Part shown: in pieces, positions 9,600-60,122 of the stretch
How the letters are laid out: each line of letters begins with the position of its first letter
Numbering within the stretch: position 1 is the stretch's first letter
Assembly (NCBI GenBank): GCA_910890315.1
Contig: CAJVGD010000001.1
Span: 2,108,001 to 2,172,000 of the forward strand
Reading direction: 5' to 3'
DNA: 64,000 nucleotides
DNA from: Serendipita indica DSM 11827
Taxonomy: Eukaryota; Basidiomycota; Agaricomycetes; Sebacinales; Serendipitaceae
Position numbers and translations under genes: made by a program
Notes under the pieces: model-generated
Database searches by the model: none
Seen by the model: the letters and a program-made list of their open reading frames with translations, nothing else
What the model was told of the DNA's origin: nothing

Positions 9600-11095
9600 T
9601 CAATATGGCTTGTATGTCGGGGGTATCTTGTCCTGCATCGTCGACGATGCTGCGGCCACGGATTGATTATGAATGACTTTCATGTGTCTGCTGACGTTTT
9701 GAATCGAAATTTGCTTGCCACTGTCACAAGGGGGAAACGGTCAGAAATCTGCCTGCGTCTGATGCAGAGGGAAGGGCGCGTACCATGCCTCGCATTGCTT
9801 GCGCCGTGGAATGGAGCGCCGGATGTGGTCGTCCTTTTGGCCAGACGAGTAGAATCTTTGTGTGCAGTCTGGTCGCGCACACTTGCCGCCGCAGACAAAC
9901 GGTCGGTACTCCAAATGCTGCCGCGCATGACCTTGGGCACGATCAAGACGCTCTTCTGTGCGCTCACATCGTCGTCCTTCACACAAACTGTCGGCTCCAT
10001 GAGTGTGACCGTGTTCTTCTACTTCCATCTCGTTCTCGCCAGGTGAGCCAGAGGACGAAGGAGGCGTGCCGACCGAACTGTCGCCTCCTGGCGGGAGCAC
10101 AAACTGGCACCGATATGTTCTTGTGGGCGTCATCTCTAGGAAAGCACGGAATCTGCTCTCTCCAGGTCGTAGGATTTTGGCATGGATCACGAGCGGGTCT
10201 GAAGTCTCGAGCGGTGGCTCCATCTCTTGGTTCAGGAACCACGGCGAGGTAATGATTTGCTCCGCCAGTGCAGTCAAATGAGGCGAGTTTGTAAATGAAC
10301 GGGCGATGAGTGGTCGGAATCGTTCAAGGGCAGCGGCTGCCGACGCCGAGAGTGCGTTTGTAGTTGAGAGGGGTGCGACGGGAGGAAGTGCTGTAGTGCT
10401 GCTGCTCATGCTCGAAGCTGTTGATGGACGAATGTCTGTGGTGCTTTGTCGGCGTACCTGCTGAGGACGGCGGCGTACGGGCGCAGTACTTGCAACAACC
10501 GTGGACGAGGTGACACCCGTCGAGGTTTGTGCAGCACCTTCGGGACGTCGGATCGTAGTTGGCGATGGAGCGAGCGATGAATGAAGAATGTAACCTGCGG
10601 AAGGAGCAGGAGGAGGGTTTCTATTATTCGACTGAGTGATCGTCGAGGGACCACCGGAAAAGCTAGAGGGCGTCGACGGTCCGGGAGACGATGGCGACGA
10701 AGGCGAAGACTGTCCGCCGCGGACGACGTCTGGATGTATAGCGTGAGCGTGTTGAACGGAAGAAGTCACAGGACCCGAGGAATATGTCCGCACACGCAAC
10801 GGAGCCGACTGAGATTTGGTCGAGGTGGCCACTCGCTGCTCCTCGTCGTCTTCTTCGTCTTGGAGTTGGTCCTCCTCATCGTCGTCATACGTTGGCTTGC
10901 GGTGATCGCCGTCATAGATTGGATAGTGGTGTTTAGTCACGAACGTCGTCCACTCGCTGGAGTCGGCCGAGGATTGCTTGCGAATGGGGGTGGCAAGTAT
11001 GTTGCCTGAGAGTTCTGAGCGTGATTGAAGGATGATAGACTTGGATGGCGAACACTGCCAGAGGAATGAGGATGCGAGGGAGAGCTGATCATCAT
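9600..11095 (-). CDS. Zinc-finger protein with Ser/Pro-rich N-terminus (module copy 1)
   Basis: Probably a nuclear nucleic-acid-binding protein. Long Ser/Thr/Pro-rich and acidic N-terminal region, a conserved-looking block EMTPTRTYRCQFVLPP, then a C-terminal zinc module: C-x3-C-x4-C followed by RFYSSG and a His, then CEACGK and N-x2-R-H-x4-H. The second finger appears only after removing a 63-base intron at 9721-9783 (GTACGC to GTGACAG): codon TG|T rebuilds the second Cys, and the frame continues to TGA at 9600-9602. The 5' end needs a 50-base intron (donor GTGTTC, acceptor CTCAG, about 11001-11050) joining the ATG at 11095 (MMISSPSHPHSSGS) to NILATPIRKQ; the donor is weak, so the start is less sure. 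Same module as the genes at 49818 and 56093. Confidence 0.7.
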
Positions 11096-35386: not shown

Positions 35387-37078
35387 TCACGCAACGGGAG
35401 CCACTGGGGTCTCGTTGGGGAGGAGTAGGAGGGCGAGGAGAGGGACAAAGGGGACAAGCGCCATGGGTGATCCGGCCATGAGGACGGAGGCAATAACGAG
35501 AATGTTGGTCAATTCCGAGTTGGATCCCTTGAAGGCGGTCTCGAGCACGTTGGTCTGCTGGAACTTTTCAACCGGCTGGCTTGGGTAGTACTGGGGAGCG
35601 GGCGAGTAGTACTGCTCAGCTGGCTGGCTGTAAGCAAGGCGCTGCTTCTCCTCGACGGTCGCGGCCACCATCTTGGCGAGAACGCGCTGGGTCTCGTACG
35701 AAGGAGGCGGGCAGGCGACGTTGCCGAGAGGGAAGTTGACGTTGATGGGCGAGATTGGCGTCGGCGAGAGGATCTCTGGCTGAGGAGCCGGAGAAGCGAC
35801 AGGAGCTGGCGCAGCTGGGGCAGCCGAGACAGCAGCGGCACTGAGGACCTCGGGCGTCAAGTTGGATGGGAGCTTGTACATGAGGTCGAAGGCCGGCTTC
35901 GCACCCTCGTCGAGTGGGCGGAGCTCAACCATCAAGGTATCCTTGACGTGCTGGACGCGAGCACCAAAGTAGCGCTCGGATTCGAGGTGCCAGAAGACGG
36001 AGCCGCTGAAAGAAAGTTAGCTTTGGAGTCGAGGCTAGAGTTGTGCAGACGAACCTAAGGTAGAGCTCGACACCCTTGATGTAGGCCTGGACGAGAGGGT
36101 CGACTTCGGGGCCGAACGAAGGGACGTTGGCGCACTCCTCGAAGAAGCGTTCGATAGCAGAGTCGATCATGCCCATGACGTACTCCATTGCAGCCTGAAC
36201 AGTAATGTTCTTGTTGATGGCAACAATGGCAACGAGGTTGTGGCAGTCACCCGAGGATTGCTCGTTGTCAAACGAGTAAACATCGTTGGCCCACGAGAGG
36301 ATATCATTGCCAGCCTCCTGGAGAGCAGCCACGGAGGGGTGGTAGAAGGCCTCGTCTGGGACGTCGATGTTGAGGCAGTACTCGATGCAAGCATAGGTGA
36401 CCTTGATGGCCGAGGTGTCGCGGCGGAGAGCGACGTACTCCTCGATGGTTGGGCAGCGAGAGCTCTGGCGGTTGCCGCACTGGTTCTTGACGGCCATGAC
36501 ATACTCGTAGGTGGTGTCAGTGAAGCGCTTTTGCATCTTTGGGGTCGAAGTAGCGCAGAAGCGGGTCCAGAAGCTAAACAAGAGTCAGAACAGAGTCTTG
36601 GAGACACGAGCTTGGACGTACTCATGGAAAGCAGTGGCGACTGGGAGGCCAGCATATGGGCGGAACTTGTGGGGGTGGGTGAGGACACCCATCATGATCT
36701 TGGCAGCCTTGTCCGAGGCAATCTTGTCATGCATAAGGTCGGACGAGGGGAGGTCCATGAGGTCGTCATAGGCGAAGAGGATCGACATGTAGTCGCAAGT
36801 GATACGGAGGCGGGTAGCATCGGTATCTGGGTACGACATGCCGGTCATGAGGCCGAAATCGCACTTGACAAACTTTTCAAAGAGTGCCGGGGGCATCATG
36901 TTGTAGCTGCGTGGTGGTGAGCCACAACTCTGGGATTTCAGAAGCAAACAAACCTGTTGAACCACTCGTTCGAGGCACGGGTGACTTCGCGCTCATCGGG
37001 GTGAGTGCGGAGCTCAAAGCGGTCCATAGCACCGAGGATATCAGGGAGGCGGATGGTGGCAGGAGAGACAGATGGCAT
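35387..37078 (-). CDS. Class I terpene synthase (fungal sesquiterpene-synthase type) with C-terminal extension
   Basis: Cyclises a linear prenyl diphosphate, probably farnesyl diphosphate. From MPSVSPATIRLPD (37078), over introns near 36910-36955 and 36577-36622: the Asp-rich motif DDLMD at residues 89-93, the NSE triad in NDVYSFDNE (N233, S237, E241), and the ERYFGARV Arg-Tyr pair near residue 320, so all metal- and diphosphate-binding residues are present. Catalytic domains of this class end about here. The frame instead runs on for about 165 residues: an Ala/Pro/Val-rich linker, a Gln/Tyr/Pro-rich part (QYYSPAPQYYPSQP), and a hydrophobic end with LTNILVIASVLMAG and LVPFVPLLALLLLP. Stop at 35387-35389. 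No P450 or transporter gene adjoins it. Confidence 0.9.
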
Positions 37079-40437: not shown

Positions 40438-41717
40438 TCAGAGGCCATCTCGCACTACGCCAGCGTGATAGAGCTTCGGGAATACGGCCTGCAAATCCAC
40501 GGCGGTGGTAAGAGTCGGAAAAGAATACTGACACAGGAAGACCACCACCGACTTGAGCGCATGATGGCTCAAGTCGATGAGATAGTCGTCTAATTGACAG
40601 CAATGTGGCTGGGCCCAAGAAAGATGTACGCGTTCCAAGTCATCGATGTTGAGTTCGATACTTTCCAGTGTCCGAGGTCGGGGAAGTCTTTGGAGCATTT
40701 CGAAGATGCATTTGCAGGGACTTGCAACGGCGATACTGTCGGATAGATAACTCGTTATACTGAACTCACGTAGCGCAAAACACGACGAATAGTCCCACGA
40801 CGCTTTGCAATAGTTAGGCACAGCATCCAAAGGACGAAGAATAACTCACGGAGGATATCAAAAGAGCAGGCATCTACTTTCATTTCTAAGCGCCGCATTG
40901 CGGTACATCGTCGAAGGAGCACATTATCTCCTTCACACCACTCTGAGGGATACTCCAAAACATGGAGAACGAGTGTGTGTATATTCTGTAGGCGATTAAA
41001 TCTGTCAAGCCAATCACAAAACGCGGTTATCGCCCAGATCTCTATTTGGACGAGACTCAACCTCCGTATCGGCGGCGGATGAAGCCAGTGTGATAGCTGA
41101 ATGATATCCCTAGACTCCCATGTGGCGTCTTCAACTGTGAGCTCTGTGCAACGCGAGCTTGCCAGGAGTGTAATAAAGTCGTTGAACGATCGAAAATTGA
41201 CGCAATCCAACTCCAGCGAGGTAACGTGGGATATTATGTTATGGAGATGTGCCCATGACCCGCCAGTTTGACGATAGTTGTTAGGCGCGTAGACATGAAC
41301 ATCCCGTAGACGTGGAAATCGAAATGAGCCAGCCACGAAGAAAGCGGGTGGAGGCCCGACAACAAACTCGCTCAGGGGAAGAATGATCTTGATTTCGATG
41401 GTATATTGAGTAGGTCGTCGCGGAGAATTGAAGAATGACAGCATTGGTGCCCATCCTTGGACTGCTGCGCCGACAAGGGAGGTCTCCGGTGTCTGCCTCC
41501 GAAAAAGAGCCCACGGAAAATTCCATGAACTGACCAGTGGAGGAGCCTTTGGCTGCTTCCATCTCGGATATCGCAAGGAAATCGTATGAAATAGTCGTTT
41601 CCAGGCTATGCGCATCCACGCACGACAGACGAGGCTACAAGCTTTGAGAGTGGACTTGGACGTCGAAAATTGGTCAAATATAATTTCCCACAGTTCGACA
41701 GGCAGGTCAGTGGACAT
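40438..41717 (-). CDS. F-box protein, tandem copy A
   Basis: Probable SCF ubiquitin-ligase adaptor. MSTDLPVELWEIIFDQF (from 41717) with LKACSLVCRAWMRIAWKRLF is an F-box in residues 4-50. The rest, about 350 residues, is a leucine-rich, poorly conserved substrate region with LPLSEFVVGPP, FPRLRDVHVYAP, TSLELDCVNFRSFNDF and LHPPPIRRLSLVQIE. One intron (40810-40850 region; GTGAGT to TTGCAAAG) joins DILR to ASWDYSSCFALRE. Stop 40438-40440. The frame is open upstream of the ATG, but the conserved CGCCA..ATGTCC start context seen in all copies supports this start. Closest in the array to copy D. Confidence 0.8.
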
Positions 41718-42181
41718 TTTTGGCGACACGGTGGGGGACAAGCTGGAAAGCACAACCCGTCCACGGTTAGCGCTTGATATTCGGGAACTCGCTCTGTGCC
41801 AGGCACTCGGTACAGACAACCCTCAACAACAACAAGAGCCCTTTCAAGCGCAGAATGGCTCATCTATCGCACATCCCATTCTTTAATGCAATCTACGGGT
41901 TATGCTCAACCAAAATTTGAGCCTGACTGCCACTTTCGCCGTGCTATTGAACAACCTAGCTAGCAACTACGAAACAATTACAACGCTCAAGAATGATGTA
42001 TGTATCCGAATCCATGAGAGCCTGAGATAAAGATTCCAGGGGCAAAAGTGGAGGCCTCGATTGCATAGATTTCACCCTCTGGTATGAGTGGAAGCGATAG
42101 AGAAATCATAAACGTACAACGGTCAGATTTTCAACTATAGTTCAGGAGCTTTCTCCGAGATCGAGACTGACCATAAATTGA
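41718..42181. other. Spacer between F-box copies A and B
   Basis: No gene. It holds the promoter of copy A and the 3' flank of copy B. Confidence 0.5.
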
Positions 42182-43464
42182 CTATAGACTAGCCATTCCG
42201 TCGTACGGATCCATTATTTGAATGTACATTTTGCCGGTGGAATAGAGCTTGGGGAGTATGGATCGGAGCATGAGCTCGAACTCCGCGGGCCTGCGCATAG
42301 GATACCGGGACGTATAGACAACCACCAACCGAAAGGCATGATGGTTTAGATTGGCAAGGTAGTCGTCTAATTCATGGCAGTGCGTCCAAGAAATGTCCAC
42401 CACCTTCTCAAAATTCAAGTTGAGCCTGATCCTTTCCAGCACCTGAGGTCGAGGGAGTCGCTGGAGCATCTGAAGAATGTCTGCGCTATGATTTTTCGTA
42501 CAAAATCCCGAGATAGTGATCTCACGAAGCGCAAAGCATGATGAACAGTCCAATGATGCTTTGCGAGCGTCAGCGGCGGCTTCGAGGAGATGAAACTCGA
42601 CTCACAGACTATCTGAGACAAGTGGCCTTTGCTTGTATCCACTTCTAAACGCTGTACTGAAGCACATCGACGAACAAGGATACTATTTCCTTCGAGATAC
42701 TTTGGGGAACATCCCCGAAGTGTGACCTCTCGTATCTTGGGCAGATGATTAAAGTGACCAAGCCAATCACACAGTGCGGTTATAGCCAGGGTGTCTATTC
42801 GAGCAAGACTTAGCCGGTGCATTGGTGGTGGATGAAGCCGGGGTGGTGATGATTGAACGTTGGTCGCGGTCCTCCATGTCGAATCGCTCATTATAAGTTC
42901 GATACAACGCGAACTCGCAAGGAGTGCCATAAAGTCGTCGAAAGAGCGAAAGTTGACATGAGCAAGCTCCAGCGTGGTGACCTGGGAGATAATGTTGTTC
43001 AAATATGCCCATGGTTCACCAGTTCGGAGAGGTAGATTGAATGCTGAAACGTGGATCTCACGTAGCTGAGGAAATCGAGAGGACCCGGGCTTGAAGATCC
43101 CGGATGGCGGGCTAACTACAGACTCATGCAAAAAAATTTCGATGCGGATTTTGGTTGTATGCTGGGTAGGATGTAGCGGGGAGTTGAAAAATCGCAACAT
43201 TGGCGCCCAACCCTCGCCTGCTCGGCGGGGGGCAGGGGTCTGTTTTGGAGGACGAGCCCACAAAACGTTCCAGGAGCGAGAATTTGGCAGAATCTCGGGG
43301 GCCTCCCATTTCGGATATCGCAAGTAGAGAATACGAAATAGTCGTTTCCAGGCCAGAGTTTTCCAGGAGCGACAGACGAGGCTACACGCTTTCAGGGTGC
43401 GTCTACGTCCAAGAAGCCCGTCAAAAATGATCTCCCAGAGCTCGTTTGGAAGGTGAAAGGACAT
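42182..43464 (-). CDS. F-box protein, tandem copy B
   Basis: Same plan as its neighbours: F-box MSFHLPNELWEIIFDGLLG with LKACSLVCRSWKTLAWKRLF, then ALRYPKWE-like and leucine-rich blocks (QVTTLELAHVNFRSFDDF, LHPPPMHRLSLARID). The intron at the copy-A position (GTGAGTCG to CTCGCAAAG) leads to SSLDCSSCFALREITI and LDDYLANLNHHAFRLVVV; stop TAG 42182-42184. Start chosen at 43464 from the conserved array context. Intact. Substrate unknown. Confidence 0.8.
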
Positions 43465-43709
43465 TATCGGCGACACGGTGGTGTTCTAAGCTAGAAGCGC
43501 CGGCTCTCAGTCCAGGATTTGCAGAACACCTGTAGCTTGATGACGCCACGGGATCCGTAGTTTACCAAAGCTTGATTCATTACCGCACTATCACTGTCTG
43601 ACAAGGACATTCTCAGACCTACCAGCCGATTGCGAGGCTTAGACGTGTTGTATCCGAATTCCACGAGAAAGGTCAAGTTCTCAGGGCATAAACTGGGGGC
43701 ATATATATT

Positions 43710-45077
43710 TCATCCTTTGAGATCTATGCGAGCGATAGAAGACCCTTGAACGTAGAAGGCGTCAGCTTTTCGAAAGCCGAGCTTATAGCCCCGTCCACGC
43801 AGTGTCGTAGGTTCCGCCTTTCGAGTGTCCAGCCTGCCGGCAAAATACAGCTTGGGGAACATGAATTGAGAGACCATAGACTCCGAATCCATGGAAACGG
43901 GCTGCACGTGTCGTGAGGTGTGAAGTACCAGGGACTTAAAGGCACGACGGCTCAGATTGAAGAGATAGTCGTCTAATTCATGGCTTTCACGGTCATTCCC
44001 AGAAAGATCTACGAGATCCAAAGATATGAGCTCGAGCTTGATCCTTTCTAGACGCTCAGGTCGAGCTAGTTTCTGGATCATCCGAAGGATTTCGGCGCAG
44101 GGATTTTCCCAGCAAGATTCTGTTAAAGTAATCTCACGCAGGGCAAAGCAAGAGGAATAGTCCCGAGATGCTTTGCAAAAGTTAGCAGTATCTTTGAAGC
44201 GAACAATGGTAAACTCACAGACTGAGGCACACGTATAGGTGTCACCTATACACACATAGAGAAACTGTACTGACGTGCATCGTTGAAGGAGAACATCGTC
44301 TCCTTGGCGATGCTCTGGCGTACGTCCTTGTAGTTTGAGGGTACGTATATCTCTCAAACAGTCAAAGTGATGGAGCCAATCACACAATGTGGATATAGCC
44401 CAGGTTTCTATTCGGGCAAGGCTTAATGTGTGTATTGGCGGTGGATGAAGCTGGTGTGATAATTGAACGTCAGGTTGGGACTTCCATGTCGAGTCGCTGA
44501 TTATGAGCTCTGTACAACGCGAGCTCGCGAGGAGCGTCATCAAGTCGTTGAAGGAGCGAAAGTTGATGCGAGCAAGCTCCAGCAGAGTGACCTGGGAGAT
44601 TAGGTTGTTCGACTGTAGCCATGAACAACCAGATCGATGGGTGGATCCACACACGAGGACATGAATCTCACGCAAACTCGGAAAGCGAGACGAGTCGGCT
44701 TCGAAGAAGTCGAACGAAGGTGCGACAGCGGACTCGTTCAGGTACAGTCCCATCTTGATTCTGACTGTATACTGAGTAGGTTGTAGTGGAGAGTTGAAAA
44801 ATAGCAACAATGGGGCCCAGCCCTCGTCCACCTCGCTGGCATTGTCAGAGAGGCATTTCCGAGAACGAGCCCACATAGACTGCCAGGAGGAAGTCTTCGG
44901 GGGTGCCATTTGTTGATCCCATGTTGGATACCGCAAGTAAAGAGTATGAAATAGTCGTTTCCAGGCCAGAGACTTCCAGGAGCGACAGACGAGACTACAC
45001 GCTTTCAGAGTGCGAATTTGTCCAAGAAGCCCGTCAAAGATGATCTCCCAGAGCTCGGTCGGAAGGTGAGAGGACAT
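43710..45077 (-). CDS. F-box protein, tandem copy C
   Basis: F-box MSSHLPTELWEIIFDGLLG (start 45077), LKACSLVCRSWKSLAWKRLF, then the leucine-rich body. The conserved intron (GTGAGT..CTGCTAAC..TTGCAAAG, about 44166-44213) is 48 bases long and has no stop in frame, so the whole region reads as one open frame; splicing and retention both give full-length protein, differing by 16 residues. The C-terminus is about 30 residues longer than in the other copies and ends SSIARIDLKG, TGA 43710-43712. Nearest relative is copy B. Confidence 0.8.
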   Translation of the reverse strand: MSSHLPTELWEIIFDGLLGQIRTLKACSLVCRSWKSLAWKRLFHTLYLRYPTWDQQMAPPKTSSWQSMWARSRKCLSDNASEVDEGWAPLLLFFNSPLQPTQYTVRIKMGLYLNESAVAPSFDFFEADSSRFPSLREIHVLVCGSTHRSGCSWLQSNNLISQVTLLELARINFRSFNDLMTLLASSRCTELIISDSTWKSQPDVQLSHQLHPPPIHTLSLARIETWAISTLCDWLHHFDCLRDIRTLKLQGRTPEHRQGDDVLLQRCTSVQFLYVCIGDTYTCASVCEFTIVRFKDTANFCKASRDYSSCFALREITLTESCWENPCAEILRMIQKLARPERLERIKLELISLDLVDLSGNDRESHELDDYLFNLSRRAFKSLVLHTSRHVQPVSMDSESMVSQFMFPKLYFAGRLDTRKAEPTTLRGRGYKLGFRKADAFYVQGSSIARIDLKG

Positions 45078-45509
45078 TATTGGCGACACGGTGGCGTCCA
45101 AGTTAGAAGCGCCGACTGTCGTGCAACTATACCCGCAGCCACAGATGGACAAACGAGTTCACAACAGCAGCCTCTTCCAAGATGCTGGGTGATCTGTCTA
45201 TTGCAGCATATGCCAACCGATTCAATGTCGTCTATGGTGAACCAAGATTCTCCGCAACACACACTCACAATGACGAGATGGTTGCGATGTATAGATATGT
45301 TATATGCACCAGAAACGAGTCCACTAATGAGGTCGGGCTCTCCCTGGCACGTACAGGACGCTTCTATTGCATAGAATTGAGTCGCCAGTACGTGTGGGGG
45401 ATATTTGCACTACAAGTTGGTGAGGATGCCTGAATGCGTGATGCTGTGATTGTCAACGGAAAGTGGATTGACGAGCATCTCCCGAAACTGAGCATTATCA
45501 GTTGTACAG

Positions 45510-46780
45510 TCACTCGGGATACGCATCCATCATCTGGATTTTCAGCTTCCCCGCGGAATAGAGTTTTGGAAATGCGAGCTGCAACCTTCTTGGGCGCTGG
45601 GATGTATGAAGCACCAGCGACTTGAACGCATGGCGGCTCAGGTCGATGAGATAGCTATCCAATTCGTGGTATTCTGTCCAAATAAAGCCTATAAATTTCA
45701 ATAGGTCGAATTTAAGGCTGATCCTTTCCAGTAGATGAGGTCGAGCGAGACGGCGGAGCATCTGAAGGATGCCTGAACAGGGGTTTCCTGTAAACGAGCC
45801 CGTTATGGTGACCTCACGCAGCTCTAAACAGGATGAATAGTCCCATGACGCTTTAATGAAGTTAGCGACGACATCGAGGAGATGAATCTAGACTCACAGG
45901 TTTCATGCAAGTAGAGATCATTTATATACATCTCCAACAACTGCAGTGAAGTACACCGTCGAAGAAGGATGTTGTCTCCTGCATAACATTCCAAGTAGTG
46001 TTTCCCATAACTTGGGGCTCCAAGTGTAATCGCGTGTATGTTTTGCAGTCGATGAAAATGGTTCAGCCAATGACAGAATGCGGATATTGCCCAAGTCTCT
46101 ACTTGGATGAGACTAAGCCTCTGTATTGGTGGTGGATCAAGTCGGTGTGCCAGGTGCGTGCTGTTCCCAGATTTCCATGTCGCTTCCTTCACTGTGAGCT
46201 TAGTGCAGCGTGAATGTGCAAGGAGTGTCATAAAGTCTTTGAACGACCGAAAATTGACGGAAACAAGCTCCAGCGACGTGACCTGGGAGATTACGTTGTT
46301 CAAATGCGCCCATGGACCGGCAGCGTGAAGGGAGGGTTTCCACGCAAGTACGTGAATCTCACGAAGGCGTGGAAACCGAGGGGAACCGGCCACGAGAAGA
46401 CCGAATGGAGGGCCAATAACAAACTCGCTCAGAGGAAGATTGATTTTGATTTTGACGGTGTACTGAGTGGGTTGGAGTTTGGAGTTGAAGAATTGCAAGA
46501 TCGGAACCCATCCCTGGTCCGCTGGGCTGATATACTCATCACAACTATCAATTATTTGCCTCCGAGAACGAGCCCATACGGTCTTTCTGGGATGGGTTCT
46601 TAGTAGAATATCTTGCTCCACCCATTTTGGATATTGGATGGAGATAGTATGGAATAGCCGTGTCCATGCCAGGTCCTTCCAGATATGACAGACAAGGCTA
46701 CACGCTCTCAGAGCGTATGCACACCCCAGAAGAGCGTCAAATATGATCTGCCAGAGCTCGACTGGAAGACGGACGGACAT
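45510..46780 (-). CDS. F-box protein, tandem copy D
   Basis: F-box MSVRLPVELWQIIFDALLG (start 46780) with LRACSLVCHIWKDLAWTRLF; body with LPLSEFVIGPPFGLLVAG and VNFRSFKDFMTLLAHSR, closest to copy A. The intron before ASWDYSSCLELREVTI has the usual position (GTGAGT..TCATTAAAG). Stop 45510-45512. Intact, about 400 residues. Together the four copies form an array on one strand at 1.3 to 1.7 kb spacing. Confidence 0.8.
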
Positions 46781-49817: not shown

Positions 49818-50587
49818 ATGGAGTGTCCCGTATTAGTACAGTTCCTACCGCAGCAAGACCCCTCTTTGCGAATCGTCTACGGTATATACACCCAGACAGC
49901 TAACCTCTCGAACTCATACCTTACTCAGGTCCTCCACCACCGCCGTCCTACGAGTCCTTCCTCCCCCTCGATAGCCCAGGTTTTGAGTACATTCCGACAA
50001 TTGACTCATACAACCTGCTAACCGGCGACTCTGAGGCATTCAATTTCTCGACTTTTGGCGACACCTCGGGACTACAAGCGGCCCAGCCGATCCTTTCGCA
50101 TCATACTCCAGAGTCTCAAAAGCAACAAACAACGCCCGCAGCAAGTGCTCCGATGAGACAGACCTCCGGCAGCCAAGGCTTGAACAAGGTAGCAAAAGAA
50201 CGACGCAGATGTCCTACATGCCTCGGCTCTCATTCGCGTCCAGTGCGCTATCAGGAGTGCCAGAACAAAGCCATTGGATTCTACCCATTCGAGTGTCATG
50301 GCACGTGCGGCAATCCTGAGTGGTAAGCTGGTCTAATGAGTTAGGCGCGTCGTTACTCGCATTGAATTCCATTTAGTACCGCAAAATTCTACACGAAGGA
50401 ACTTCTGCAGCGTCATGCCTGTCCTCGAGACGAGAAGAGGGCGAAATGCACTAACTGGTAAGCTCCTTGTCATTCGTAGGAAAAGCTTGCTGACAGCTGC
50501 GGTATTCATAGCGGCGAGATAGGTTGGAAGCAGAATGCGGCACGACACCGACGAGTTTGCAAGGCATCGATTACACCTCTAGAATAG
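49818..50587 (+). CDS. Zinc-finger protein (module copy 2)
   Basis: Four exons. MECPVLVQFLPQQ, intron (GTATAT to CTCAG), then GPPPPPSYESFLPLD and a disordered region; CPTCLGSHSRPVRYQEC, then FECHGTCGNPE and, over an intron that splits Cys as TG|T, CTAKFYTKELLQRH; KRAKCTN then an intron splitting Cys as TG|C, then CGEIGWKQNAARHRRVC and stop TAG 50585-50587. Without splicing the frame ends falsely at NPEW. Likely a small nuclear DNA- or RNA-binding protein. Close homologue of the gene at 56093 and, in the C-terminal module, of that at 9600. About 200 residues. Confidence 0.7.
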
Positions 50588-50729
50588 TATACCATGCATA
50601 ACCCGGCATGTATCTACCATCAAAGATATAAACCTGATTGTACCGCTTGCTGCGTGCTGAGAATGGACTAAGGACGTGAATCGCCACTGTCATACTTGCC
50701 ACTCGACTCCGTCGTCTGCCGCCAGTAAA

Positions 50730-53700
50730 ATGAATCTGGAACACGGCATAAACGAGGATTACTATGACAGGGACTATTTGGATTACAGTGGCACTGACGA
50801 AGCTGACTACTGGGCTCGCTTTGATAAGATGGCAGTCGAGGCGGGCAGCGGTACGCGTTTTCCCTCTCAAATCACGCATATTGTTCCTTATAAGGTGTTT
50901 ATAATTATGAATTATACCTGATCGACGCGTTTTCTCGCCTTCGACGCGGTCAACGACCCGCGTTCCAGTTGGGTATATGGGCGATGACGCGCAAAGCTAC
51001 GATTTTCCGCAAGAGGACTTGCAATATGAGTCGTATACATCCAATACTCGTGTTCATGCAACGGATTTTCAGGACGAAGACATGAATCAGTTCGAAGACT
51101 CCACGATGACCAAGACGCATAAGAAGGCGAGCTATCACTCTCAATTAGGATCAAGTAACGCCAATCTACGATTTACGTACAGGGCTAACGTACCTTCAAA
51201 CCAAGCCAACCTTGCGCCGTCCCACGTCCGAGGTATCCAACTCGTACCTACGTCTGACCTTCGTAAGGCTATGAATCAGGCTATCTATATACACTCAATT
51301 TATTTTTCTATTTCAGCGGATGCCTACCGAGCCATCTTTCCGTTCAACGCCTTCAATGCCATCCAGAGCAGTTGTTTCTCGCACATTGTGGACTCTCATG
51401 AGAATATGGTCGTTTCCGCACCCACTGGTAGCGGAAAACTGTCCTCTTCGAGTTGGCGATCGTCAACATGCTCAAGAACGGGAACAATCCGAATTCCAAG
51501 TGCATTTATATAGCTCCAACAAAGGTACGCTCCCGTGTCGTGCCTAAAGACGGCCTATTCAGTATTTTGTAGGCATTGTGCTACGAAAAGTTCAAGGACT
51601 GGCACGACAAGTTTTCGAAACTCGGCGTACAGTGTTAGTGGACGCAGCAACCAATCATCCGGCATGGACTGACACCGATTAGGCTGTGAGCTTACGGGCG
51701 ATACGGTATTCTATGGAAAAGGTGCATGGGCGAACGCCAAAGACTCTCGGATAATGTAGGTGAAATATCCAATGTATAATGCGAACCTAACCTTCTTCAG
51801 CATTACCACTGTGAGCGCGTCAGTAGTCTAGAACCCTCGAATGACGAGATCCAGCCCGAAAAGCTTGACAGTCTTTCTCGGAATTGGTTTGAAGCCCATT
51901 CTTCGAGCGTATCAGTTGCTGACTCAGGCGACGTAGGAGTATTCATGAATCCATGTTCGGCACCATCAACCTGTGCGCTCTCACTCGTACACGTCGCATC
52001 TGCTCATCCCTTATAGTGTATGCGTTGACGAGGTTCACATCCTTGGAGACGAGCGGGGTAGTACTCTAGAAGTGTGCCTTTCAAGGATGAAAGTCCGTGG
52101 TCAATCACGGTTCATTCTGGTATCAGCCACTGTGCCTAATAGCAATGAAATCGCGGCGTGGATTGGCTCACAAGATCGAAGAAGTGACGCTCTATGCATG
52201 AAGGTACGTCTAATGTGTCATATTCTGTGCGAAACTTGACTGTGTTGTACCAGTTTGGGGATGAATATCGTCCATGCAAGCTAATTCGCCATATACACAG
52301 TTATGCTCGTCAAGGTCTCAACAACTTCCAGTTTGAACACGTTCTCGACGCAAAGGTGTATCCCATGCTGCGGAAATACTCTGAAGGCAAGCCGGCGCTC
52401 ATCTTTTGCGCCACTCGGAAAGGTATTGCTCCAAAACACAATATGCGCAGAGCTCATGGACGTAAAGGGGTTGTAACCACGGCACAGGGAGTCGTCAAAG
52501 CGTATAAGCAGGCTATGAAAAACGGGCAACCCCCACCTTGGCAGAAACCAAGGTGCGGCATTTAGCTCTCGGAGTGGGATACATCTAACCGACGACAGGC
52601 AAAGCTGGTCAGTGGCGCAGCCTGATCTCAAAGGTATTACCCCAATGCGTACGCTGGCCGTCACCTAAACTTCTGCAGATTTGCTCTCTTTTGGAGTCGG
52701 CATTCATCATGCTGGACTCAGTATTGAAGATCGGCGATTCGTCGAGGAGCAATTCTTGAGCAATAAGCTTTCCGTCATGGTTGCAACATCCACTCTTGCC
52801 GTTGGTATCAATCTACCCTGTCATACAGTCATCGTCAAAGGGCTAGAGATGTGGGATGGTTCAAAAATGAACGAATACTCTGATTTGGACATCGTCCAAA
52901 TGATGGGTCGAGCTGTAAGTCTGGTCCTGTATGCAAACCTCCGCTAAACCTTCCCCATAGGGACGACCGCAGTTTGGTTCGTATCTATCTATCCATATAG
53001 ATGTGAGGTTAATAGATTCAAGACCGAGAGGGAGTGGCCGTCGTTCTTTGCGACAACCACCAGAAGCAGCGACTCGAAAAGTTCTGCTTCGGGTCCACGA
53101 TTCTGGAGTCGTCGCTTCACCTTTCTTTGGCCGAACACATCAACTCTGAGGTTGTGCTTGGGGCGATAACCGACGTTCCAACGGCACGTAAATGGCTCAA
53201 GAGCACATTTCTTTTTCAGCGCATTCGACTCAATCCTTCCTACTACGGCATCGCAAATGGATGCTCAATTAGGGACTGGGAGTCCTACTTTGACATGCTT
53301 GTAGAGAAAACAATCACCACTTTAGAGAAAATTCAACTCATCTCGCGGGAGGACGGTGGACATATTACCTCGACGGCGTTTGGCAGTCTCGCATCGCGCT
53401 CCTACGTGAAGCCTGCCTCCATGAGCCTTATGCTGGGGCTTTCGGATAGTGCATCCAAGAAGGATATCGTGAGTTATTCAATCTTCGCGATGGCCCTTAT
53501 TCAGGACTCCTAGCTCCTCGCCCTTTCTCAAGCTGCAGAGTGAATAAGAATTCTACACCAAAGTCGCCACATATAACGAGTCCCACAGATTCAAAGATGT
53601 TAAATTGAGGCAAGGAGAGCGATCAGTAATGCTTGATCTACACATGACATCAATACCAACCAGGTCCACAGGCTCTCAACAAGCTTTGCCAACATATGAA

Positions 53701-55972
53701 CATTCGATTTCCATTGGAGCGAGTCAATAAGCCATTTGAAAAGGTCTTTATATTGATTCAGGTCAGTACATTCCTTATAATCCACTCGCTCTCACCTCTA
53801 TCAGGCCATTCTCGGCACCATACCGCTGAACGCTCCAGAGTACAAGAATCCCGACTGTACCTTCTCGCTCGAGGCAGCCAAAGTATACAAGCACGCTCTC
53901 CGGTTGATTCGATGTTTCGTGGAGTCGGCTATAGCACGCAAAGCGGGGACCTTGCTCAAACTCTGCTTGGAACTGTTCGTATTCATATCTCGAACGCGAA
54001 TGAGACTAAGGGAAATTAGCCATAGATGTATCAATGCCAAAGGTTGGGAGGACCGTACATCAGTTCTGCGCCAGCTGGAGGGAATCGGGGAGAAAGGGTT
54101 CGCATCATGATCCACTCAGCGAGTAGTTCTGACGCGGTGCCCAGGATTCAGGCCCTCGCCAGTCACGGTGTCACAACCATTGAAAAGGTTGCCTCCCTAA
54201 AGCCCTATCAGATCGAAACGGTATGCAATGCTCATTCCATGTTTCGTGCGTTCTCTCACGCAGATGGCTGACAGTGGCTCAACCGCAAGCCTCCGTTCGG
54301 AAGAGACCTTATCAAGTCTGCGAATCGCTTCCCCCAATGCATGGTATCTCTTGAAGAACTTGATTCCACTCCTTCGAACGGCACCGATCCCGTACTTCTA
54401 TCACTTCAAATCGGATGCTCTGCCAATCTCCGGGAAACCACCTACAAGGGACCAAAGTTGACATTAGGAGGGGCCTCTGTGCTTACTTTGACATCTTCTG
54501 GCACTCTCGTGGACTATCGCAAGATCTCGTGCGTCTCTGTTTCGCTTCTCTAATTACTTCCTCACTGTCACCAGGGTCAAAGCATTGCTAAACGAAGAGA
54601 GGTTCTTTACTGTTGTCGCAAGTCTTCAAAACCCGTCTGAATCAGTCGAGGTGCATGTTTCGCCGGTACGGATCGCTTTTTATGTACTTCAGTGCTCACC
54701 TTTGAACAGGATGAGTATGCAGGCGTCGCAATCTCCCTAGAGTACAAGCCCAAGCTGTCGGCAGATCAATTCCCGATACCAGATACCCGCCCTCTAATTA
54801 AACCGGACCCAGTATTTCGGCCTAATTCGATCTTTCGCGGTCTCTTATTTCCATTCAGGCTCCACTCACGGAACGTACAGAGTCGGTTGACGACAGGTCT
54901 GGAACCAGGCGTCAGGTCAAAGCAACCACAGAGCTGAAGCCTCACGGTATCGAAGTCCAGAACAGGTTAGTCATACGAATACTGAAATGTCTATTCATAT
55001 CTTTGTAGCTGTGGTCATCGTTGCAAGGACAAGTCTTCTTGCCGACATCGCTGGTAAGTTCCCGGTCAAAATGGGGCAGAATTTCCGGCTGACATGACTA
55101 GTTGTCAAGATGAATCCGCTAAAGTGCATCAGAATCGATCACATGTGGAAGAGAGGAACAAGGCAAGCAAAAGGCCAGATCTATCTACGGCCATCGAAAG
55201 ACCCCTAGTGAGACGCGCTTCCCTGGTCACTGGGCTTGATGATTTGTATAAAGACGCAAGGATTGGGAACAGAACCGATGGTTTTGCGCGCATGACGATC
55301 AGACCTGCACTCAGAGTTTTGGACCTCGAGACTTCTAGAGATGCACCTGATACTCCCGACAATATTGTCTGTAATTCCGGACCCCCCAAGAAGGAGAATA
55401 TCTCCCGAATTGACCCCAACATTTCGCCATCAACACTACCTCGCGTTCGGGAGGGAACTGCTATTGGAAGGCGTACCAGGGATGTTCCTTCCGATGCTGG
55501 AACCCGGCATGCGAAACGGATGAAAGTTGACGATGGTGATAGCAAGATGTCATGGATCAAGGTGTCGAAAAGTATCATCAATCTTGACAGATCCGACTCC
55601 AAACCCATCCACTCATCCGCAAATCCTCGCACTTCTCTTCCTGAAACTACTCTGAGCTCGGCAAACTTCCAAGCGGATGAGGAAAGAGAACCTCTATTTC
55701 TTTCCTCGAGCGTACAAGGTGAAGAGGAGGCTTGTACCTCTGATTTCGAATTGGATCCACGCTTCTTCGAGGACTATGGTGATATTATGGGAGATTTACC
55801 TCAAGAGACCGCAACCAAGTCGACCGCCCAGCTCTCCTCGCCAGTCAAGATGCAGCATTCAGACGTGAAAGTCGTAGAAGACTTTGGTGATGATCGTGGA
55901 GACGGATTGATTGGAAGCTTGGACGACGATGCGGCGTTCGACAAGTTTTTTAGTGGTGTGGAGATTGTATGA
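50730..55972 (+). CDS. HFM1: Meiotic helicase MER3/HFM1 with apparent frameshift
   Basis: Ski2-like DNA helicase that supports meiotic crossovers. Acidic N-terminus (MNLEHGINEDYYD), then FPFNAFNAIQSSCF, APTGSGK (motif I), YIAPTKAL, IITTPEKLD, CVDEVHILGDERGS (DEVH, II), FILVSATVPN (III), LIFCATRKG (IV), GIHHAGLSIEDR, VATSTLAVGINLP (V), and IVQMMGRAGRPQ (VI). A winged-helix and Sec63-like region follows (NPSYYGI, ALNKLCQHMNIRFP), then a Cys/His cluster CGHRCKDKSSCRH typical of HFM1 rather than Brr2 or Slh1, and a disordered acidic tail ending at TGA 55970-55972. At the A run 51435-51438, right in motif I, the frame needs one more A to give GKTVLFELAIVN. More than twelve introns. Confidence 0.85.
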
Positions 55973-56092
55973 GCCACTTAGAACCTGATCCAGTCATTTT
56001 CTCTGAGAATTGTGAATAATGAACCAGTTATTGGACATCATTGAGGCATAGAGCATATATCGAACGGACTCGGTCCCTCAACTGGGCTGATA

Positions 56093-56917
56093 TCAGACGC
56101 CACATCTGGCTCGGTGGCGCGAGGCATTCCTTTTCCAACCCATCTTTCCACTGAATATATATTGAGATTGGTTTTCTTCCATAAAGTCGAATACTTGCCA
56201 TTTCTCACACGGCAAGCGGCCTTGAATATGGACCTTCCTCCTTTCCGAGCTCGCAAACGCCTTGGGACTATTGGGAGAGAGCATATCAGTCATAGATATG
56301 TATGAAATGGCGACTTGTCCTTACCACTCTACACTTCCACATGCTCCTCCACAAGGAAAGGGATACTGGTTGGTATGCTTGTTGCTGCAGGCTCGACGGC
56401 GGACTGGCCGAGAATGGCGGCGGCCGCAATAAGAGCAAATGACAGGATTCTCTTGAAAACTATTTGTGATAAGGGTTGACACAGTAGGGGTGGGTACCGA
56501 CGCCTGTAAATTGCTGAGGAACGATACATTGTACCCAGCTTGGGAGGACCTGGCACCTCTCGGAGTCAAAGAGTTAGCAGAATAGTTCAACATAGGGTCA
56601 CACATGCTGTCAGAGGCCAGAGCTATGGGCGAGATGTTGCTGCCTTGAAAGTAGCCAAGGCCACCGCCGACGGCTGGCTGCTGTCCAGGGCTGAAAGACA
56701 GAAAAGGTATCGAAATATTCGCCGCCTCTTGAAGGGTGAGTGGATACTCGAGAGATACGGGCTGGTCAGTGACTATGTTCATGTCGACGAGGGTGGGCCA
56801 GCTGCGCGTGCTGAGAGGATGCGAAGGAGCTGAAGGTCGTGTCAATGGAAATCTTATGCATAGTGTACTGAATAATAAGGACTGACTATAGGTCTGCACA
56901 TCAACTTTGTAAGACAT
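56093..56917 (-). CDS. Zinc-finger protein (module copy 3)
   Basis: Start MSYKVDVQT at 56917. A disordered, Ser/Pro/Asn-rich region, then CSYCGRRHSRPVRRRAC and YPFPCGGACGSVE; an intron with donor GTAAGG splits the next Cys (TG|T) and leads to CPKAFASSERRKVHIQG and LPCEK; then a 48-base intron with donor GCAAGT and acceptor ATTCAG splits the next Cys (TG|T) and leads to CGKMGWKRNASRHRARCGV, TGA 56093-56095. The GC-AG intron is stop-free and a multiple of three, so retention would add 16 residues and replace the Cys. Reading only the unspliced frame ends falsely at SVEW. Copy of the gene at 49818. Confidence 0.7.
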
Positions 56918-57473: not shown

Positions 57474-57850
57474 CAGTCATCTTTTTCTGATTCCTTTCAA
57501 CCACAGGTCAATCTGTTCTTGCGACTCGACAACTGGCGCCTACTGATGAAAGGTTTGTCGTTTTTCCTCTCCTCCCTGCACTCCAGTTGCATGATTACCA
57601 TATTAATCAGACGCTGAAACTGCGCTCCTTCAAGGAGCTGCAAGTATCAATGTCGAAACCGTCTTCAACCATATGATCCCTTCGTTACAGTCCGCGCTCA
57701 TTGCTCTAAACTGACTTTTTTCCTTTCAGAATAACCTAAGCGCCTTTAAAAGTAATGAAATCGACTGAGATGTCTCGTAGGATATATTCAACTAATCAGT
57801 ACAAGTATCTGTATATCTAGGTGGTGTCCCTGTGAAAGAGATGGGCTCCG
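57474..57850. other. Intergenic, nothing recognised
   Basis: Pyrimidine-rich stretches; likely promoter and 3' UTR sequence. No open frame of interest. Confidence 0.45.
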
Positions 57851-58502
57851 TCATGACATGACATGTAATTGCTTCTCCTGGATGCCATTTCGTACAACAT
57901 CCGAGTATGACGGGTAGATATAGTGCTCCTCCTCCTCGACATAAAAGTCGGGAGCCCACTCGTCCAAGAATTCCTGGTCGTCGTCGTCGAGCGTTATGAT
58001 TGCACGAGATCCGGGCTTGGAAACGAGGTCGTAGTCATCCATAAGGGCTATCACGAGACTGGCGTCAATGACCGTTCGCCTTTTGTCAAAGCACCTGCTC
58101 ACCCTTTGTTTTGCCTTTTCGCTTTGTGACAACGAGAGATAGCAATGGAACTTCGTTGGACGGCTCGCTCTCGGGGTACACGTCTGCGCTGACCAAATCT
58201 TGGGTATTATCCTTGACCAGAGACCCGACATCGCTCATATTCTCGAGTACATCGTCTCTGTGTACTAAATCCTCTTCTCGTAATCGCAGAACTGTGCCCC
58301 TTGGTGTTCGACGCGAACGCAATGCGCTCGGCCGTTTGATAGAGAGATCTTTCGATCGTTCTAGGTTCCGCGTCTCTGTTGTAATACTGGCTATCCTTTC
58401 CCGACTTGCACTAGTGCGTCCCGGGCTGCCATCGTGCGACGTGTTATCAGCCGTTCGCGATGACTGAGCAGTTATCGGTTCGCTGGAGGCCCCAGAGGCC
58501 AT
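57851..58502 (-). CDS. Disordered acidic protein of unknown function
   Basis: Start MASGASSEPITAQ at 58502; Ser/Arg-rich exon 1 to DLVSAD, then a proposed 67-base intron (GTGTAC to GCGAAAAG, phase 0) to AKQRVSRCFDKRRTVIDASL, IITLDDDDQEFLDEW and YIYPSYSDVVRNGI, TGA 57851-57853. Without the intron exon 1 would end near 58086. The upstream frame stays open to 58625 without ATG of better context. C-terminal 70 residues look conserved and acidic; no family recognised. Confidence 0.45.
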
Positions 58503-58650
58503 AGTACGCGTGTTTGATACAATTTCGATTGATTGGAAAGCCTTTCCGGGCCGCTGATGATCAGAGAATTTGACAGCTGCGATCGCAAGGTCCAACCTAT
58601 CTCTTTGGACCTCTACCACGCCCAACTATACCCGTGAGCCGGGCCTACAC

Positions 58651-60122
58651 ATGTCCAAGGATGTCGAAGAGACGATTGTGAAGACGTCGAATGTCAGAAT
58701 TGTGGGCGCAGTGGCTGGAATGGGTTCAGGCATGTGAGGCTTTGCACGTCAACCGGAGTTGCAAGTCTAATGGACGGATTATCTAGGTCTCACAAAGGTA
58801 TTCGTCATGTCAAAAGTGTCACGTTAGGGCTTGACTCTCCCTAGGTCGCAGTTGGACATGGGTAATTCATGCGCATTTCTACCTGAAAGCACAATGTCTA
58901 ATGAGATGATTCAGATTCGACACCGTCAAGAGTAGGATACAAGTTTATCCCGGTCAATATAATGGTGCAATCGACTGTTTTTTGCAAATTGTTCGAAAAG
59001 AGGCAAGTTATTTCTGACAGATCACAGCATGACTGACTGTTTTAGGGACCCCTTGCACTGTACAAAGTATTGAACTCAGTAATATCCCGCAGGAGTCACT
59101 AACTAAGCGCAGGGAGCGACGCCTCCTGCTGTCGGATGGGCCGCCATTGATTCAGTACTGCTCGGCTCACTCCACAACTATCGACTACACCTACGACAGT
59201 ACCGAATTTTCAATGAGCCTTCGACATCTTCTAGCTCTCTGACTCGGTTGACCATACTCGGACACGGACTCGCAGGACTTGGTGCAGGCTTGACGAGGTG
59301 AGTTCCGTCACCCTGAATATACCCAGTCTATAACCTGCCTCAGCGCATTCGTTGCGACTCCTATCGAACTTTTAAAAGGTGGGTAAAGCTTGAACAGTTG
59401 AGCGTGACTTAGGCTTTCGTAGTCAAACTTCAGTTACAGCAACAAGCACTTAAAGCGGATCGACAATTTAAAGGACCGATAGATTGTGCCAAACAAGTTC
59501 TTCGGGCTCAGGGACTCAGAGGCTTATACCGAGGATTGGCGGGAAGCTTGGCCTTTCGAGCCAATTTTTTCTGGATGTTTATGAGCATAGAGGTAAATTC
59601 GATCCGATTCATTGTATCGATATTAACTCTCCTATAGGCCATGATGCGAGAAGTTGGCAGACTTGAAGGCACGGGTTTCGCAGTAGGTAACCCCATCCAG
59701 ACAGTTGCATCCACTCACGCGATGCAGATGACAGAAGGAACTGCCAACTTTATATGCGGAGGATTGGGGAGCTTTGCATTTTGGTTTATGGCCATTCCGG
59801 CAGACAATGTGAAAAAGTTGGTCGCTCTTTGTCCTCGAATTCGAATTCACCGACTAATTCTTGTTCTAGTCGTGTATTTGGAGCACCTCTTGATACAAAG
59901 GCGTCTGTTCGAGGTGTCATTCGGGAAATTTACTCGACGGCGGGCGTACGCGGTTTTTATCGTGGCCTGGCACCGTCAATCTTGCGTGCTTTCCCATCGA
60001 ATGCGTGTGCCTATTATGTATACGAGGGTGTCCTACGACTCCTCGGAGCAGAAAAGGTACGGACTTGATTACTCCTTTCAACTCCGCCGCAGCTTACTTT
60101 CGTACACCAGACTCGGGGATGA
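58651..60122 (+). CDS. Mitochondrial carrier family (SLC25) protein
   Basis: Inner-membrane carrier with three repeats. Start MSKDVEETIVKTSN (58651). Repeat 1: VAVGHG then FDTVKSRIQV (over an intron), GATPPAVGWAAIDSVLLGS. Repeat 2: GLAGLGAGLTSAFVATPIELLK, then after an intron VKLQLQQQ, GLRGLYRGLAGSLAFRANFFWMFMS. Repeat 3: FWFMAIPADNVK, then SRVFGAPLD, GVRGFYRGLAPSILRAFPSNACAYYVYEG. All three Px[DE]xx[KR]-type signatures are present, in varied form (FDTVKSR, TPIELLK, IPADNVKSR). Resembles carnitine/ornithine-type carriers, but the substrate is not predictable. Final intron GTACGG gives a last codon string EKTRG and TGA 60120-60122; otherwise the gene ends at 60068. Confidence 0.85.

What the first reader, a model, noticed from the sequence alone, without database searches (positions are those of the whole stretch)
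49818..56917. One zinc-finger module in three genes, with an intron splitting the same Cys codon in all
The genes at 9600-11095, 49818-50587 and 56093-56917 share a C-terminal module: C-x3-C-x4-C, an aromatic turn and His, then CxxCG and N-x2-R-H-x(3,4)-(H/C). In each, the second Cys of CxxC is cut by an intron between TG and T/C. Copies 2 and 3 also share HSRPVR and a second intron splitting the third Cys (TG|T). Identical intron phase at zinc-ligand codons argues for common descent. The unspliced frames all end falsely (EW stop), so automatic annotation may miss the module. I do not know a named family that fits.
Basis: partly seen in the sequence, partly recalled or inferred. Interest (0 to 1): 0.75.

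Follow-up and report, generated by a model that had tools for sequence, protein, structure and literature searches.

The report
Divergent fungal C2H2 zinc-finger gene family
Three genes of an unidentified, probably mushroom-type fungus end in the same divergent three-finger version of the common C2H2 zinc finger, with introns cutting the same cysteine codons, so they look like related gene regulators of a familiar kind that standard domain searches overlook.

Summary
After splicing in silico, genes A (9600-11095, -), B (49818-50587, +) and C (56093-56917, -) share a C-terminal Cys/His module. Its five introns are all phase 2 and split a Cys codon as TG|Y: one site is shared by A, B and C, another by B and C. 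Corrections: A's unspliced frame does not end in EW-stop, and C's second intron is GC-AG. A partial, intronless fourth copy (D, 58650-58745, +) was missed.

The module is not an unnamed fold. No Pfam model reaches its cut-off, but a profile of A, B and C finds C2H2 arrays in the PDB (best E 6.6e-14); three scrambled or reversed control profiles do not. I read it as three divergent C2H2-type fingers: F1 with a TGEKP-like linker, F2 with an unusual C-x3-C-x4-C-x12-H ligand set, F3 as C-x2-C-x11-H-x3/4-C/H with invariant N-x2-R-H. DNA binding with disordered N-terminal effector regions is the likely function (inferred). It is a paralogous set of divergent C2H2 regulators, of modest interest. No fungal collection could be searched, so its distribution is open.

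The parts
9600..11095 (-). Gene A: C2H2-type protein with a long low-complexity N-terminal half; its 5' exon structure is unresolved
   Evidence: open frame 9744-11096 (-) plus spliced 3' exon
9657..9989 (-). Module of A (F1 C-x4-C-x12-H-x3-H, F2 C-x3-C-x4-C-x12-H, F3 C-x2-C-x11-H-x4-H), interrupted by one intron
9721..9783 (-). Intron of A, 63 nt, GT-AG, phase 2, splits the second Cys of F3
   Evidence: branch-like CTGAC 24 nt from the 3' end
49818..50587 (+). Gene B: acidic/aromatic N-terminal region plus module
49882..49928 (+). Proposed 5' intron of B, 47 nt, which joins the ATG exon to the module frame
50195..50584 (+). Module of B (with its two introns)
50323..50376 (+). Intron of B, 54 nt, GT-AG, phase 2, splits the third Cys of F2
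   Evidence: no branch-like site close to the 3' end (CTAAT 44 nt away)
50458..50511 (+). Intron of B, 54 nt, GT-AG, phase 2, splits the second Cys of F3
   Evidence: branch-like CTGAC 22 nt from the 3' end
56093..56917 (-). Gene C: first exon open from ATG 56917, then module
56096..56449 (-). Module of C (with its two introns)
56268..56324 (-). Intron of C, 57 nt, GT-AG, phase 2, splits the third Cys of F2
   Evidence: branch-like CTGAT 22 nt from the 3' end
56151..56198 (-). Intron of C, 48 nt, GC-AG, phase 2, splits the second Cys of F3
   Evidence: only a TTTAT 35 nt from the 3' end as branch-like site
58650..58745 (+). D: partial fourth copy (F3 and the end of F2), uninterrupted at the Cys codon where A, B and C carry an intron; probable relic
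   Evidence: mixed; see full report

Best explanation
A, B and C are divergent paralogues in a set of fungal C2H2-type zinc-finger proteins. The C-terminal module is three tandem zinc fingers. F1 (C-x2/4-C-x12-H/C-x3-H/A) is joined to F2 by a linker with TGEKP spacing (H-LEYRP-F-V-C in A, H-TNQYP-F-P-C in C). F2 keeps the Phe and the helix His of a C2H2 finger but lacks the second His and has an extra N-terminal Cys (C-x3-C-x4-C-x12-H). F3 is C-x2-C-x11-H-x3/4-C/H with an invariant N-x2-R-H helix. Most likely the module binds DNA through the F2 and F3 helices, while the Ser/Pro/Gln/Thr-rich, partly acidic N-terminal half recruits other factors, so these are transcription regulators. Shown: the spliced reading frames, similarity of the modules, shared intron positions, profile similarity to C2H2 arrays. 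Inferred: that the introns are used, zinc binding, the ligand sets, DNA binding, the regulator role.
For: Spliced frames and five phase-2 TG|Y introns. Similarity beyond Cys/His placement. Profile of A+B+C against the PDB: Aart (2i13) 6.6e-14, WT1 about 1e-8, consensus finger 1mey 2.2e-7, then ZIF268, TFIIIA and others; the printed alignment to Aart puts the three fingers on three successive fingers, F2 with an insertion. B+C alone: Aart 2.2e-7. Controls with the Cys/His columns kept but others permuted: no hit and best E 0.7; reversed: no hit. Single-sequence searches point the same way: A to WT1 7.7e-5, B to Aart 0.0038. Eighteen invariant columns include C33, C37, C42, H55 (F2), C66, C69, H81 and N77-x2-R80 (F3) (numbering of A). 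B's N-terminal half holds a 40-residue stretch of net charge -7 rich in aromatic and aliphatic residues.
Against: No Pfam model reaches its gathering score; B has no Pfam hit listed at E up to 10. B and C hold no canonical C-X2/4-C-X12-H-X3-5-H; A holds one, in F1. F1 in B and C lacks the hydrophobic core residues of a classical finger (my reading against the recalled consensus), and in B the last F1 position is Ala. The MAFFT alignment sets A's second F1 Cys against the first F1 Cys of B and C, so the F1 ligand correspondence rests on spacing, not on that alignment. AlphaFold on a contiguous fragment of A gave mean pLDDT 37.6, so the fold is not shown. N-terminal halves of B and C are not detectably related (score 26, shuffle mean 32.5). 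Two of five introns lack a well-placed branch-like site.
Confidence: 0.8

Rival explanations
1. The module descends from C2H2 fingers but no longer reads DNA; it is a zinc-stabilised protein-protein or RNA-binding unit.
For: F1 of B and C has lost classical core residues (His and Pro where Phe and Leu are expected, by the recalled consensus) and B lacks the last F1 ligand; F2 has a shifted ligand; the F2-F3 spacing is not a TGEKP linker.
Against: F3 keeps N-x2-R-H in A, B and C, and N-x2-R-H is also present in D; the best profile matches are DNA-binding arrays, though a profile match does not test binding.
Confidence: 0.25
2. Some or all copies are decaying genes, so the set is mostly relics of a past expansion.
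For: D is a fragment with a stop upstream in its frame; C uses a non-standard GC donor; N-terminal halves of B and C are not detectably related.
Against: A, B and C each keep every F2 and F3 ligand position and an open spliced frame.
Confidence: 0.15
3. The three modules share only convergent Cys/His spacing, and the introns landed at similar sites independently.
For: C2H2-like spacings recur widely (recalled), and a Cys codon before GT or GC may be a favoured insertion site (speculative).
Against: With Cys and His fixed, 0 of 2000 shuffles reach the observed score for any of the three pairs; same column and same phase at one site in 3 of 3 genes and at a second site in 2 of 3.
Confidence: 0.05

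Closest known systems
C2H2 (Kruppel-type) zinc fingers, Pfam PF00096 / PF13894 / PF13465; solved examples Aart (2i13), WT1, ZIF268
   Same: Tandem Cys/His units, TGEKP-like F1-F2 linker ending P-F-x-C, finger helix His, N-x2-R-H helix in F3; best PDB profile hits.
   Different: Sub-threshold in Pfam; F2 has an extra N-terminal Cys and no second His; F3 has x11 not x12 and ends in Cys in B and C.
C2H2 gene family of Basidiomycota as catalogued in PMC12295980 (abstract and outline, sections 2.2 and 3.1, and find passages seen)
   Same: Same superfamily and probably the same phylum; 1032 genes in 30 species, with lineage-specific expansions reported.
   Different: That census requires a PF00096 domain hit (incdomE 0.01) and the canonical motif. 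B and C have no canonical motif; PF00096 gave E 0.27 for C, 2 for the A composite and nothing for B in hmmscan, a scale not identical to theirs. B and C would fall outside that census.

Membership tests
C2H2 zinc-finger superfamily | Profile similarity to solved C2H2 arrays, absent from controls | tested here: met
   E 6.6e-14 to 2i13; three controls: none, best 0.7, none
C2H2 zinc-finger superfamily | Canonical C-X2/4-C-X12-H-X3-5-H in the module | tested here: not met
   Met once in A (F1), not in B or C: 1 of 3 modules. Filed as divergent relatives, not as canonical C2H2 members
C2H2 zinc-finger superfamily | Pfam zf-C2H2 model above its gathering score | tested here: not met
   PF00096 12.2 bits (C) and 9.5 bits (A composite) against a 25.2 cut-off; none listed for B
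C2H2 zinc-finger superfamily | H-x5-(F/Y)-x-C inter-finger linker of TGEKP type | tested here: met
   F1-F2 only: A HLEYRPFVC, C HTNQYPFPC; B has Ala in place of the His (AIGFYPFEC), so 2 of 3; F2-F3 does not have it in any of the three
C2H2 zinc-finger superfamily | beta-beta-alpha fold | tested here: inconclusive
   AlphaFold of a contiguous fragment of A: pLDDT 37.6, helices 16-20 and 49-59 only
C2H2 zinc-finger superfamily | Zinc and DNA binding | not testable with these tools
   needs protein
Other Pfam families (24736 models scanned) | Hit above the curated cut-off | tested here: not met
   only sub-threshold TBPIP_C (18.2 of 27.2 bits) and C2H2-type models

The most novel reading that the evidence does not exclude
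The introns mark an exon-per-finger design. In B and C both introns fall at the equivalent point of successive fingers (TG|Y of the Cys that starts the x11-x12-His stretch), so the exon between them is a symmetrical 2-2 exon (81 nt in B, 69 nt in C) carrying one finger period. Such exons could be duplicated or dropped without breaking the frame, making this a fungal C2H2 family that can vary finger number by exon gain and loss, with an F2 whose fourth ligand has moved to the N-terminal side. Against it so far: A lacks the F2 intron, D lacks the F3 intron, and no copy with a different finger number was seen.
Probability: 0.15. Interest if true: 0.45.

Novelty: new variant of a known kind. Interest (0 to 1): 0.27.

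Why it matters
It shows a practical blind spot: divergent C2H2 genes with introns inside zinc-ligand codons score under Pfam cut-offs and fail the canonical-motif filter, so published C2H2 counts in basidiomycetes may be low. If the exon-per-finger reading were right, it would be a neat case of finger number being free to evolve by exon changes.

Tried and rejected
Own genome: none is held for this window, so there is no count of family members in the genome. Relatives: profile scans of viral contigs (A1; A8) and genome contigs found none (127, 50 and 250 pattern matches, none confirmed by tblastn at 1e-3); phage records, no match at E 0.1 (module B only). These collections are viral, bacterial and archaeal, so this says nothing about fungal distribution. 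The metagenome collection is capped at 0 scans and was not tried; plasmid and E. coli records were not searched.

Structure: AlphaFold of a 69-residue fragment of A with three partial rows failed (pLDDT 37.6). A 209-residue stretch of A gave pLDDT 45 overall but block means of 60-79 for residues 21-80, upstream of the module. No fold search was run because the models are weak.

Match at 58415-58501 (+), 8.4 bits, C-x3-C-x4-C-x3-F: set aside, because the other strand has a probable gene there (57850-58502, read by eye from the sequence, not scanned) and more than twelve-fold of the random stretches listed score higher (all 12 listed are 10.5 or more).

A relaxed contiguous pattern finds D and also 3 matches in 60 random windows; the strict contiguous pattern does not find D. 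A PDB search with D gave one irrelevant hit at E 7.8. With A its score is only 32. For: tblastn with B E 1.3e-4, with low-complexity and composition corrections off; B+C F3 profile 14.6 against a random best of 11.7 in 60 windows; direct score with B 70 against a maximum of 50 in 40 random windows, with C 55 against 53.

Literature: eight searches, seen as listings. Six short strings (from the modules or guessed variants) gave 0 papers; the GC-AG search with Cryptococcus gave 0. Of the papers, only PMC12295980 (abstract and outline, two sections, find passages) and PMC1973085 (one passage, an entry of its reference list on GC-AG introns) were opened. No listed title names this module, which is weak evidence: most papers print no sequences and most subscription papers are not held.
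Full report
What is there. The window reads as a fungal genome stretch with short introns. Its neighbours include a terpene synthase (PF19086, 35925-36536), three F-box-like genes above cut-off and a fourth just below it between 40755 and 46780, and a C1-domain protein (23569-24831) (20 of the 30 open frames were scanned). No tRNA and no Rfam family at its gathering score is found. I take this as a mushroom-type basidiomycete, but that is inference; no genome is held for the window. Scripted splicing gives the three modules. A: SLCEGRRCERTEERLDRAQGHARQHLEYRPFVCGGKCARPDCTQRFYSSGQKDDHIRRSIPRRKQCEACGKQISIQNVSRHMKVIH. B: RRCPTCLGSHSRPVRYQECQNKAIGFYPFECHGTCGNPECTAKFYTKELLQRHACPRDEKRAKCTNCGEIGWKQNAARHRRVC. 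C: VICSYCGRRHSRPVRRRACSNKHTNQYPFPCGGACGSVECPKAFASSERRKVHIQGRLPCEKCGKMGWKRNASRHRARC.

Introns. The 5 introns inside the modules are 48-63 nt, in phase 2, and split a Cys codon as TG|T or TG|C. Four are GT-AG and one (C, second) is GC-AG. The site in the second Cys of F3 is shared by A, B and C; the site in the third Cys of F2 is shared by B and C only. CTGAC/CTGAT branch-like sequences stand 22-24 nt from the 3' end in 3 of 5 introns (A, B second, C first); B's first intron has only a distant CTAAT and C's second only a TTTAT. The exon between the two introns is 81 nt in B and 69 nt in C. The unspliced frame ends in EW-stop in B and C but not in A.

Is it chance? No. Pair scores exceed all of 2000 shuffles for each of 3 pairs, also when Cys and His are held in place. 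A strict intron-bearing pattern finds exactly these three genes and nothing in 60 random windows, with the caveat that the pattern was drawn from them.

What it is. Pfam gives no hit above cut-off; the sub-threshold hits are C2H2-type models and one TBPIP_C. Against the PDB, A alone finds WT1 (7.7e-5), B alone Aart (0.0038), the three together Aart at 6.6e-14. That search matched 123 distinct sequences at E up to 1; the 60 shown all bear names that I recognise as C2H2 proteins, the other 63 were not shown. B+C without A finds Aart at 2.2e-7. Two permuted profiles that keep the Cys/His columns give no hit and two hits, best E 0.7; a reversed profile gives no hit. So the assignment rests on more than Cys/His spacing, on three controls. 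In the printed alignment to Aart, F1, F2 and F3 fall on three successive fingers, and F2 has an insertion that brings an extra Cys. Its four invariant potential ligands are C33, C37, C42 and H55; no His follows at the usual place. The F1 ligand assignment is weaker: MAFFT aligned A's second F1 Cys with the first F1 Cys of B and C, and my reading there follows spacing.

Fourth copy. At 58650-58745 (+) the frame reads HVQGCRRDDCEDVECQNCGRSGWNGFRHVRLC, 1.7 kb from C and on the opposite strand. Its score with B (70) is well above the 50 reached in 40 random windows; with C it is 55 against 53, with A only 32. Profile tests are mixed: 14.6 against a random best of 11.7 with B+C; 13.3 against 13.4 with the whole module; 10.2, below at least 10 random stretches, with A+B+C F3 (60 random windows). 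I take it as a probable relic of the B/C kind. It has no intron at the Cys codon, as an mRNA-derived or never-interrupted copy would.

How it likely works. Tandem C2H2-type fingers with a TGEKP-spaced linker and an N-x2-R-H helix most often read DNA (established knowledge, recalled). The N-terminal halves are about half Ser/Thr/Pro/Gln/Asn/Gly (51, 51 and 48 per cent in B, C and A), with an acidic, aromatic stretch in B and a strongly acidic stretch in A (net -7 and -13 in 40 residues; -4 at most in C), as in many activation domains. DNA binding and activation are inferred, not shown. F1 is degraded in B and C, so F2 and F3 would do most of the binding, or the module may instead bind proteins.

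Compared with what is known. PMC12295980 catalogued 1032 C2H2 genes in 30 basidiomycetes, using a PF00096 hit and the canonical motif (sections 2.2 and 3.1). B and C carry no canonical motif and A carries one, so B and C at least would be missed. The genes probably work like C2H2 regulators and belong to the superfamily by profile, but as divergent relatives that fail the canonical-motif and Pfam tests. Whether the module has been described under some name in fungal proteomes could not be checked.

Limits. There is no RNA evidence, no fungal sequence collection, no usable structure model of the module and no binding data. Gene A's 5' exon is unresolved: an intron search offered only GC-donor solutions (donors limited to G[TC]A).

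Noticed in passing
   Followed up: yes
40755-46780 (-): Four neighbouring F-box-like genes in one orientation (three above the Pfam cut-off, one just below), a local cluster.
   Followed up: no
35925-36536 (-): Terpene synthase family 2 C-terminal metal-binding domain (PF19086, E 1.2e-37).
   Followed up: no
33429-33962 (-): DDX23-like domain (PF25430, E 4.8e-12), possibly a splicing-related protein.
   Followed up: no
9783-10409 (-), residues 21-93: Upstream of A's module AlphaFold proposes three helices and a strand pair (block pLDDT 60-79 for residues 21-80, about 50 after that), with no Pfam match.
   Followed up: partly
57850-58502 (-): Probable gene on the minus strand with an acidic C-terminal stretch, read by eye from the sequence, not scanned.
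   Followed up: no
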